Assembly: GCA_016218825.1 (NCBI GenBank)
Contig: JACRCV010000099.1
Span: 124,001-188,000, forward strand
Length of the DNA stretch: 64,000 nt
DNA from: Deltaproteobacteria bacterium
GTDB lineage: Bacteria; Myxococcota; XYA12-FULL-58-9
Reading direction: 5' to 3'
The notes beneath the pieces are model-generated. The model worked only from the letters and a program-made list of their open reading frames with translations. It was not told the origin of the DNA and did no database searches. Below, piece by piece: positions 48,971-54,073 of the stretch; positions within the stretch are counted from its first letter, which is position 1; each line of letters starts with the position of its first letter. The position numbers were made by a program, and so were the translations under genes.

Positions 48971-51900
48971 TCAGTGACAGCTGAATGAGGTGCCGGAGCG
49001 CGTGCCGCTCGCCGCGCAGGTGCTCTTGCCGCCGTACGGGAAGCTGTTGACGCCCATGACGTTGCCGCGCACCAGCCGACCGCGGTTGACCGCGCCGGGC
49101 GTGCCGTCGGTGCCGTGCCAGCCGTGACAGTTCGGGCAGCCATAGCGGCCGCCGTGGTCGCCGCTGGTGTGATTGTTCCACGAGGCTTGGCTCGGGGTCT
49201 TGGCGCCGGTGACCCCGGCCGGCGCGGTGGAGCCGTGGCAACCGGTGCAGACGGCATTGTAGGACCGCGTCCGCGTGGTCACCGCCGCGTCGGGCAACGC
49301 GTAGATGGTCCAGCGACTCGCGGGGTTGATCGCCGCGTTCGGATGCGGTTGGGCGACGTGAGCGTTGTGGCAGTCGTTGCAGCCGACGGCGATGCCGGTG
49401 CCGCCCTCGATCTTGTGGTGCGACACGATGCTCGCCGACACCTTTTGAAAGTCCGGCAGCAGGTCATTGTGGCAGCCGGAGATGGTGCACGCCGCCGAGC
49501 GGCGGTCGGACAACAGCGCGCCGCCGGGGGCCGCGTGGTAGGTGTGACAGCGGCTGCACTTGTACTGCTGGCCGGCGTGTGAGCTCGCGCCCCACTTGCT
49601 CATCACGTCCTGCCCCTTCTTGCCGCCGAAGGCGGTCGTGGTCCCCGAGTCGTGGCAGGTCTTGCAGAGGCCGTCGACGTTGCCGGGGGCGTAGGCATAG
49701 GCGTCGGCGGGATCCGGATCTTTGAAGGCCGGCGTCCCGCCCATGTGTCCCGCCTCCGAGTGACAGCCGAGGCAACCGGCGTCGCTCAAGGTCGAGATCG
49801 CGTGGTTGTTCGGCAGGTTGTTGGCGACGGTGTCGTGACAGCCGATGCAGCCGGGGGCCGCGGCGGTCCAGGTGACGCTGCGATTGAGGTTCGGGGTTTC
49901 GTTCGGGTTCGCGACCACCGGGTTGTGACAGCCGACCTTGCAGGTCTGGGTGCTCTGGGCAAAGGTCGCGCTCGTCTGCCCGTTCCGCATCGTCGTGCCT
50001 CCCGGGAAGCTGACGGCGGTCGCAAACACGATCTGGACGTTGGCGCGGCCGACGTTGCCGCCGCCCTGGTTGTGGGTGGCGCCGCTGCCGTTGTTGCCGT
50101 GGCAGGTGATGCACTCGATACCGGCGGCGTCGTGCGCGGCGTGTGCCCCACCACCATTGGCGTAGTCCTGGTTTGTCGGTGTCGGCGGCGCGCCGTGACA
50201 AGCGTCGCAAGCGCCACCGGTCACCTGGACGACGCCGTCGACGTGCAGCGCCTTGTTGACGATCGTCTGATTCGGTCCGGCCGATGTCTGGTGGCACAGG
50301 TTGCAGGTGTTGGCGTCGGTGACGGCGCCGTGGGCGGCGTCGGCGGGCGGCATGCCGTGGCAGGCGCCACAGGCGCGCTCGCTCTGGTCGAGGTCGCTCC
50401 AGACCACGTTGGTCTTGCCGCCCGGCAACGTCGTGCCGTGGCAATAGGTGCGGGCGCAGGTCAGCGTCGAGTGGGCGAAGGTCGGCGCGGCGCCGTCCAA
50501 GATCGCTTTGCCGGTGAAGCTGACCTCGGCCGGTAGCGCGGTGTCGGCGTGACCGGCGTCCGCGTAGGCCGTCGGCACCTTGTGGCAGTCGGCGCACGCG
50601 ACCGGCGCGCCGATCGTCGGCCCCGCGTGTGCCTTGTGGACCCCGACCGCATTGCTGGCGGCGTTGCCGGTGGTGTCGTTGGGCGGGGTCGGATCACCGC
50701 CGCCGCCATGGCAGGCGTCACAGGCCGCCGCGGTGTCGACGACGCCGTCGACGTGGTGGCTCGGGTGCGCGATCTGCTGGCCGGGCCCGGCGGTGTCGGG
50801 GTGACAGGTTTCGCACTGCGTCGCGGTGCCGTTGCCGTGGGCCGCGTTTTGCGGCGGCATCCCGTGACAGTCATCACAGGCGCGGGCGCCGCCGGTCCAG
50901 GCCGGCGAGGTGTCGGTGGCGCCGGTGAGCGATGCCCCGTGGCACCAGGTGGTGCCGCAGGCGGTGCCGTTCCATGTCGGGCGCAACCCACCGGTCTTCG
51001 CGAGGGCGCCGAAGATCACCTCGGCGGGGAGCGCGGAGTCGTAGTGACCGGGCTGGCTCGGGGTCGTCGGGTTGACGGTGTTGTGGCATTCGCCGCAGGC
51101 CACGGCCTTCGAGCGCGTCGCGCCGCTCAGGTGTTGCTGGTGCGCGCCGACCTTTGCCGAGCTGCTCGCGCCGGCGAGGTCGGCGGGCGGCGCCGCGTTC
51201 GTCGCGGTGCCGTGACAGCTCTGACAGGGCACGCGGTCGTTGACGTCGACGACGCCGTCGACGTGGCGGCTGCGATCGGCGATCGTCGGATCGGCGGCGG
51301 TCGCCGGGTTCGCGTAGTCGAAGCTCGCGGCGACCGTCGGCGGGTGGCAGAGGCCGCAGCGGGTGCCCTGCGGGTGCGGCGGGTCGGGCGGCAGGCCGTG
51401 GCACGAGCCGCACAAGGCGCTTTGCGGGGCGTTCCAGATCGGGTCGGGGTTGGTGCCGCCGGAGCTGGCCGCGCCGTGGCAGTAGGAGCCGTTGCACGTG
51501 GCGGTGAGGGCGCGGTAGATCGGCGCCGACTGGTGCGCGACCGCGCGGCCGCTGAAGACCACTTCGGCGGGCCGGGCGGTGTCGACGTGTCCCGGGTCGT
51601 TGAGGTTCACCGGCACCCGGTGACAGGTGGTGCAGCCCACCGCGGCCGAGACTGCGCCGCCGTTCAGGTGCACGGCGTGGGCGCCGACCTGGGGATCGCT
51701 GGCGTCGGCGCTGCCGTCCAGATCGGGGGGCGGCGCCGGGTTGGCGTTGCTGCCGTGGCAGGTGCCGCAGTCGGCGTCGCTCACTTGCAGGATACCGTCC
51801 ACGTGGGTCGTGCGTTCGGCGATCGTCAGGCCGGCGCCGGCGGTCGGCAGGTGGCAGTTGCCGCAGGCGGCGGTGGTCTGATGCGCGGTCGTCGACGGCG

Positions 51901-54073: not shown

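What the first reader, a model, noticed from the sequence alone, without database searches (positions are those of the whole stretch)
48971..54073. About 46-haem lipoprotein cytochrome with seven tandem five-haem modules
Reading the protein, I count about 46 CxxCH-type sites. They comprise seven repeats of a five-site module (one CxxxxCH each) and a different C-terminal block of eleven. With a lipobox Cys31 it would be tethered in the envelope. Chains of haems on this scale suggest long-range electron transfer, perhaps to outside acceptors. Related repeat families are known from Geobacter, but a single 1700-residue, about 46-site lipoprotein in a genome of this kind is notable. The neighbours do not include a recognisable porin-cytochrome complex.
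Basis: partly seen in the sequence, partly recalled or inferred. Interest (0 to 1): 0.7.

Follow-up and report, generated by a model that had tools for sequence, protein, structure and literature searches.

The report
Long haem-chain lipoprotein of a myxobacterium
A bacterium, probably a myxobacterium, makes a 1700-residue lipid-anchored protein built from repeated five-haem blocks (46 haem sites) that probably works as a molecular wire carrying electrons out through the cell envelope; it is a real but not unique member of a known family, and the same genome has an even bigger one with 80 sites.

Summary
On the minus strand, 48971-54073 encodes a 1700-aa lipoprotein with 46 CxnCH sites: 37 CxxCH, 1 CxxxCH and 8 CxxxxCH. 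Shuffled copies never exceed 7. Seven tandem modules of about 170 aa each carry five sites and five conserved spare histidines, as expected for bis-His haems. The eleven C-terminal sites include what looks like a decayed eighth module. An uncounted C-terminal Cx12CH could be a 47th site. The protein belongs to the known CxxxxCH/CxxCH family (TIGR01904, E=5e-64) and resembles the 40-haem Anaeromyxobacter cytochrome. It is not exceptional in its own genome, which has at least nine such loci, the largest with 80 sites; relatives reach 94. The gene stands alone and is missing from the matching place in a congener. Its closest paralog (48% identical, same C-terminal block) lies tail-to-tail with an operon for a 33-haem cytochrome and a predicted outer-membrane beta-barrel. 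Three such operons exist, and other genomes show similar pairings. Best explanation: a length-variable, lipid-anchored wire forming the outer part of a porin-cytochrome conduit. Haem loading, surface exposure and function are untested. Verdict: new member of a known kind, with an interesting genome-wide setting.

The parts
48971..54073 (-). gene for the 1700-aa, 46-site CxxxxCH/CxxCH multihaem lipoprotein
   Evidence: open frame and sites; TIGR01904 E=4.9e-64, 8 stretches; PF14522 1.1e-45, PF09698 1.7e-13
54080..54085 (-). GGAGAG, probable ribosome-binding site, 6 bases before the GTG start
   Evidence: sequence read
53984..54073 (-). signal peptide, residues 1-30, basic n-region then AMLVVAALGLGA
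   Evidence: sequence; read by eye, no predictor run
53981..53983 (-). lipobox cysteine Cys31 (LGAC)
   Evidence: sequence; same arrangement in the C87 paralog (TGAC) and the C18 paralog (AAGC)
53867..53947 (-). six-cysteine mini-domain, residues 43-69, no haem motif; probably disulphide-bonded
   Evidence: Cys list; shared with C87 and C18 paralogs
53324..53839 (-). module 1 (residues 79-250), five sites
52811..53323 (-). module 2 (251-421), five sites, exactly five spare His
   Evidence: AlphaFold of modules 2-3 mean pLDDT 83
52298..52810 (-). module 3 (422-592), five sites
51797..52297 (-). module 4 (593-759), five sites
51254..51796 (-). module 5 (760-940), five sites; groups with module 3 of the C87 paralog (support 100/99)
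50750..51253 (-). module 6 (941-1108), five sites
50237..50749 (-). module 7 (1109-1279), five sites
49733..50236 (-). possible decayed eighth module (1280-1447): five sites in the same order, one CxxxCH, five spare His
   Evidence: 27-35% identity to the others, His pattern; not found by the module profile
48974..49732 (-). C-terminal tail (1448-1700) with six further sites; shared with the C87 paralog and in part with G189:C22
48974..49018 (-). C-terminal C1686-x12-C1699-H1700, possible long-loop 47th haem site
   Evidence: precedent: 14-residue-loop haem site in OmcZ (PMC9473688)

Best explanation
The protein is an outer-membrane-anchored molecular wire. It is exported, lipidated at Cys31 and loaded with about 46 c-type haems; each five-haem module supplies its own five distal His, giving a continuous chain of bis-His haems. 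By the OmcS spacing of about 8 A per haem, a straight chain of 46 haems would be about 35-40 nm long. It most likely sits outside the outer membrane, takes electrons from a porin-cytochrome conduit (in this genome, a 33-haem cytochrome with a predicted beta-barrel) and passes them to an external acceptor such as Fe(III) minerals. Module number varies between paralogs, so the wire's length can evolve. Shown here: the motif count, modules, spare His, lipobox, family membership, paralog arrangement and barrel prediction of the neighbouring protein. Inferred: haem loading, outer-membrane location, surface exposure, docking and acceptor.
For: 46 sites against a shuffle maximum of 7. Five sites plus at least five spare His in 145 of 168 family modules; the His of GAHxxH, PH and HVD are invariant or nearly so in a 65-sequence alignment. 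Lipobox. Closest paralog, 48% identical over residues 431-1700, lies tail-to-tail with a 33-haem + barrel operon; so does the 80-site paralog; a third copy of the operon stands without such a neighbour. The barrel model has about 22 strands and matches outer-membrane barrels including MtrB of the Mtr complex, 6r2q_B, E=5e-4. The same 33-haem + barrel pair sits with another 27-site lipoprotein in G008. In G024, G043 and G051 family members lie beside a barrel-like protein and an 11-haem cytochrome, in G051 also beside an OmcA/MtrC-like decahaem. ResB/CcsA haem-attachment genes adjoin the 80- and 55-site paralogs.
Against: The window gene itself has no conduit gene beside it, so its partner is assigned only through paralogs. 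An outer-membrane lipoprotein may face the periplasm. The congener G001 lacks the gene at this place, so it is probably dispensable in the genus.
Confidence: 0.6

Rival explanations
1. Electron store (capacitor). The many haems mainly hold electrons when acceptors are short, and transfer over distance is secondary. This was suggested for large cytochromes of Anaeromyxobacter.
For: Proposed in PMC2330069 for large cytochromes of strain 2CP-C. A lone gene with no partner needs no conduit. Size grows by adding modules without new types.
Against: Paralogs and relatives lie beside barrel/cytochrome operons, which points to transfer across the outer membrane. Storage and conduction are not exclusive.
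Confidence: 0.2
2. Periplasm-facing wire. The lipoprotein is anchored in the inner leaflet of the outer membrane and bridges the periplasm to inner-membrane quinol-oxidising cytochromes.
For: Lipobox without proof of surface export; a straight 46-haem chain would be long enough to cross a periplasm (inference from OmcS spacing, PMC6584659). The genome has 19-haem proteins fused to what look like cytochrome b domains on contig C7.
Against: In the neighbouring clusters the periplasmic place is already filled by a 33-haem or 11-haem cytochrome. Periplasmic carriers are usually small.
Confidence: 0.13
3. Decaying or unexpressed accessory gene: a spare paralog with little function.
For: Stands alone; absent from the matching place in G001; cytochrome repertoires turn over fast (PMC12977616).
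Against: Frame intact over 1700 codons, GC3 uniform, every site and module His retained in seven modules at only 42-54% identity, which needs long purifying selection.
Confidence: 0.07

Closest known systems
40-haem cytochrome of Anaeromyxobacter dehalogenans 2CP-C (PMC2330069)
   Same: Same phylum by inference. A 1341-aa, 40-site lipobox protein with seven of these modules was found in G037, a single-contig 5,029,329-base genome of this phylum that I take to be an Anaeromyxobacter.
   Different: No match to the window protein's C-terminal block was found in G037 by the search of the phylum (if G037 was among the 195 searched). The identity of the G037 protein with the published one is inferred, not tested.
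Geobacter/Geomonas CxxxxCH/CxxCH proteins (TIGR01904, PF09698; OmcN/OmcO/OmcP group from memory)
   Same: Same domain family; Geomonas members with 37 sites were retrieved.
   Different: Geomonas members align at 29-35% identity, lie in runs of several such genes, show no clear lipobox in my scan, and have fewer clean tandem modules.
MtrCAB / Geobacter porin-cytochrome complexes
   Same: Working model: barrel plus periplasmic multihaem plus surface lipoprotein. The barrel model matches MtrB among other barrels.
   Different: PF11854 (MtrB/PioB) has no match in the genome; the presumed periplasmic partner has 33 haems, not the 8-14 of described systems (PMC4245776); the surface partner has 36-80 sites.
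OmcS/OmcZ cytochrome nanowires
   Same: Continuous bis-His haem chains; OmcZ has a long-loop haem site.
   Different: They are filaments of small repeated subunits; here the repeats are within one chain. No sequence match to them in the PDB.
ANME large S-layer multihaem cytochromes (PMC9012536)
   Same: Single chains with 20-86 haem sites.
   Different: Archaeal, S-layer domains and transmembrane anchor, not lipoproteins; relationship not tested.

Membership tests
TIGR01904/PF09698 CxxxxCH/CxxCH domain c-type cytochromes | repeated CxxxxCH...CxxCH domain over the curated cut-off | tested here: met
   TIGR01904 212.1 bits against cut-off 27, 8 stretches; PF09698 51.4 against 21.7
TIGR01904/PF09698 CxxxxCH/CxxCH domain c-type cytochromes | covalent c-type haem at the sites | not testable with these tools
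   needs haem stain, spectroscopy or mass spectrometry
Outer-membrane lipoprotein cytochrome | signal peptide with lipobox | tested here: met
   LGAC31 after a basic and hydrophobic stretch, read by eye; no predictor run
Outer-membrane lipoprotein cytochrome | surface exposure | not testable with these tools
   needs labelling or protease shaving
Porin-cytochrome complex (Pcc/Mtr) | outer-membrane barrel and periplasmic multihaem encoded next to the gene | tested here: not met
   window neighbours contain neither; met for paralogs at C87 and C18
MtrB/PioB porin | PF11854 match in the genome | tested here: not met
   no match at E<=0.01
OmcA/MtrC decahaem family | TIGR03507 match | tested here: not met
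   window protein gives no TIGR03507 hit; only a partial MtrC domain II/IV match PF22113
Cytochrome nanowire (OmcS/OmcE/OmcZ) | sequence or fold relation to a solved filament subunit | tested here: not met
   no PDB sequence match to OmcS/E/Z; no Foldseek match for a two-module model, though folds with little secondary structure are hard for Foldseek

The most novel reading that the evidence does not exclude
This protein is one of a set of interchangeable, length-variable wires (about 3 to 17 five-haem modules between a lipid anchor and an end block) that serve a previously undescribed porin-cytochrome system whose trans-membrane cytochrome has 33 haems. Cells would set reach or capacity outside the outer membrane by adding or losing modules within one polypeptide.
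Probability: 0.35. Interest if true: 0.65.

Novelty: new member of a known kind. Interest (0 to 1): 0.42.

Why it matters
If the model is right, this bacterium carries one-piece haem wires of different lengths rather than filaments assembled from small subunits, and Myxococcota beyond Anaeromyxobacter may respire solid minerals or electrodes. The repeat gives a defined 170-residue, five-haem building block with no solved structure, and array length gives a testable handle on how far a single protein can carry electrons.

Tried and rejected
PDB sequence search with the whole protein: nothing; with the 65-row module profile: only weak matches near E=0.001 to NrfA. Foldseek of the two-module model: no match. 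Model coordinates are not handed to the Python box, so haem-haem distances could not be computed. MtrB/PioB family search of the genome: nothing; it does not see the barrels found by position. The '5179-aa' open frame reported by a search was not a single cytochrome; real counts were taken from the CxnCH-bearing frames. Profile comparison of own barrels with those of G024/G043/G051 gave only a 63-column match, probability 45% and E=2e-4, so I do not claim that they are one family. Considered and dropped: chance and assembly artefact (uniform GC3, intact frame). A mobile-element origin was not tested beyond absence at this place in G001.

Full report
Observation. The minus-strand frame 48971-54073 is open for 1700 codons from a GTG preceded by GGAGAG. 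It contains 37 CxxCH, one CxxxCH (residue 1382) and eight CxxxxCH sites, 46 in all. Residue shuffling gives at most 7, and the other five frames give none. The third codon position is about 90% GC throughout.

Anatomy. Residues 1-30 look like a signal peptide ending in the lipobox LGAC31. Residues 43-69 hold six cysteines outside any haem motif. Seven modules of 167-181 residues follow, 42-54% identical. In each, the five sites come in the order CxxCH, CxxCH, CxxxxCH, CxxCH, CxxCH. Besides these, five histidines are kept in every module: two in GAHxxH (GVHxxH in module 7), one in GHxD, one in (P)H, one in HVD or its variants. Module 2 has exactly five sites and five other histidines. In 168 modules found across the fetched loci, 145 have exactly five sites and at least five spare histidines. 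This is what a chain of bis-His haems needs, and it argues against catalytic haems with an open site within the modules.

The C-terminal eleven. The first five of these sites repeat the module's order at low identity with five spare histidines, so I read residues 1280-1447 as a possible decayed eighth module. The module profile does not pick it up, so this is a suggestion. Six sites remain in the tail. The last residues are C1686-x12-CH. The C87 paralog also ends in TSFSCH, with a longer loop. OmcZ binds a haem with a 14-residue loop between the cysteines (PMC9473688), so a 47th haem is possible but untested.

Family. NCBIfam TIGR01904 matches at E=4.9e-64 in eight stretches. Pfam PF09698, PF14522, PF14537 and PF22113 also match. 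No solved structure is close by sequence. AlphaFold of modules 2-3 with 65 rows gave mean pLDDT 83 and pTM 0.63, with little secondary structure, and Foldseek found nothing in the PDB. Such folds are hard for Foldseek, so I do not call the fold new.

The rest of the genome. The window lies in a draft genome of 6.54 Mb in 121 contigs. PF09698 matches at nine or more loci. Their proteins carry 80 (contig C18), 55 (C36), 46 (window), 38 (C12), 36 (C87), 32 (C79, elsewhere), 22 (C8) and about 20 (C66, two loci) sites. The genome has 924 DNA matches to the CxxCH pattern against 272 for the reversed control. So the window protein is third by site count among these.

Closest paralog. The C87 protein (36 sites) aligns at 48% over residues 431-1700 and shares the N-terminal cysteine domain and the C-terminal tail. 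Among 195 genomes of the phylum the C-terminal block was found strongly elsewhere only in G189, in a protein with 83 sites and 14 modules; two further genomes gave very weak matches. In a module tree, window module 5 joins C87 module 3 with strong support, and much of the rest is unresolved. The two arrays therefore appear to share their C-terminal part and to differ in number of modules towards the N-terminus. In the 80-site protein many modules are near-copies of one another (same tree), a sign of recent tandem duplication.

The conduit. On C87, beside the 36-site gene and pointing at it, lie a gene for a 33-haem cytochrome and one for a 450-residue protein. The same pair lies beside the 80-site gene on C18, and a third pair stands on C103. 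The 33-haem proteins are 50-55% identical and the 450-residue proteins 31-40%. AlphaFold gives the latter about 22 strands, though at moderate confidence, pLDDT 68.5. Foldseek matches outer-membrane barrels, among them MtrB in the Mtr complex at E=5e-4. G008 has the pair with a 27-site lipoprotein of a different type between them. In G024, G043 and G051, members of the window's family lie beside a barrel-like protein (not folded here) and an 11-haem cytochrome, and in G051 also beside an OmcA/MtrC-like decahaem (E=8e-53 but below that family's cut-off). These placements suggest that the window's family supplies the outer cytochrome of porin-cytochrome systems. ResB/CcsA-type haem-attachment genes adjoin the 80- and 55-site genes, and at least one such gene lies beside giant relatives in G042 and G189, which favours real haem loading.

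The window locus. The gene stands alone: its upstream neighbour is divergent, and a small plus-strand gene lies downstream. In congener G001 the upstream neighbour is 60% identical, but the roughly 1.3 kb on the cytochrome's side up to the locus end has no haem motif. The gene looks accessory. This agrees with the fast turnover reported for Geobacter multihaem cytochromes (PMC12977616).

Comparison with what is known. A 40-haem cytochrome was reported in A. dehalogenans 2CP-C in 2008, with a suggestion that such proteins store electrons (PMC2330069). G037, a single-contig genome of 5.03 Mb in this phylum, has a 1341-residue, 40-site, seven-module lipobox protein, very probably that protein's counterpart. 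ANME archaea reach 86 sites (PMC9012536). The window protein is therefore a new member of a known kind. The tail block, the possible long-loop site and the 33-haem/barrel operons are the less familiar parts; I found no description of the latter in the searches made, which cover open-licence papers only.

Mechanism and confidence. I favour a lipid-anchored surface wire fed by a porin-cytochrome conduit, 0.6. At the 48 A per six haems of OmcS (PMC6584659), a straight chain of 46 haems would be about 37 nm; this is an upper-end estimate, not a measurement. Storage (0.2), a periplasmic orientation (0.13) and a spare gene (0.07) remain. The assignment of the phylum to Myxococcota rests on the 5.03-Mb relative with a 40-haem protein and on gene content; no named record was matched.

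Noticed in passing
L022:12629-16794, L025:14633-18639, L065:5445-9720 (G000 contigs C87, C18, C103): Three operons pairing a 33-haem cytochrome with a predicted 22-strand outer-membrane barrel that matches no Pfam or NCBIfam family (C87 and C18 copies scanned); possibly a new type of porin-cytochrome system.
   Followed up: partly
L025:5252-14587 (G000 contig C18): An 80-site, 3111-aa lipoprotein of the same family with 14 modules, several nearly identical, and with ResB and CcsA-like genes directly upstream and divergent.
   Followed up: partly
L056/L057 (G042 contig C28, joined): A 3891-aa protein with 94 sites and 17 modules, beside two further large members; the largest seen here.
   Followed up: partly
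L018:5280-17159 (G000 contig C36): A 3959-aa protein with repeated haem-free N-terminal domains and 55 haem sites, near ResB/CcsA-like genes.
   Followed up: no
L052:7706-10636 and 16913-19468 (G000 contig C7): Two 19-haem proteins fused to what look like cytochrome b domains, on the same contig as a 13-haem cytochrome and a barrel-like protein; candidate quinol-oxidising entry to an electron export route.
   Followed up: no
L068:1874-6466 (G000 contig C68): A 1530-aa decahaem lipoprotein with OmcA/MtrC-type domains (PF22113 E=1e-32).
   Followed up: no
window 44812-48360 (-): Cys-rich (110 Cys) probable lipoprotein with DUF4215-like repeats and two Lcl C-terminal domains, next but one to the cytochrome; its true start is probably downstream of the listed TTG.
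   Followed up: no
window 38909-41750 (+): FeoB and a fused iron-dependent repressor/FeoA protein, followed by a dinitrogenase iron-molybdenum cofactor/PDZ protein and an H+-pyrophosphatase: an iron-uptake group within about 10 kb of the cytochrome.
   Followed up: no
window 20193-24371 (-): 1392-aa lipoprotein-like protein with RCC1-like beta-propeller repeats and a fibronectin type III domain, 61 Cys.
   Followed up: no
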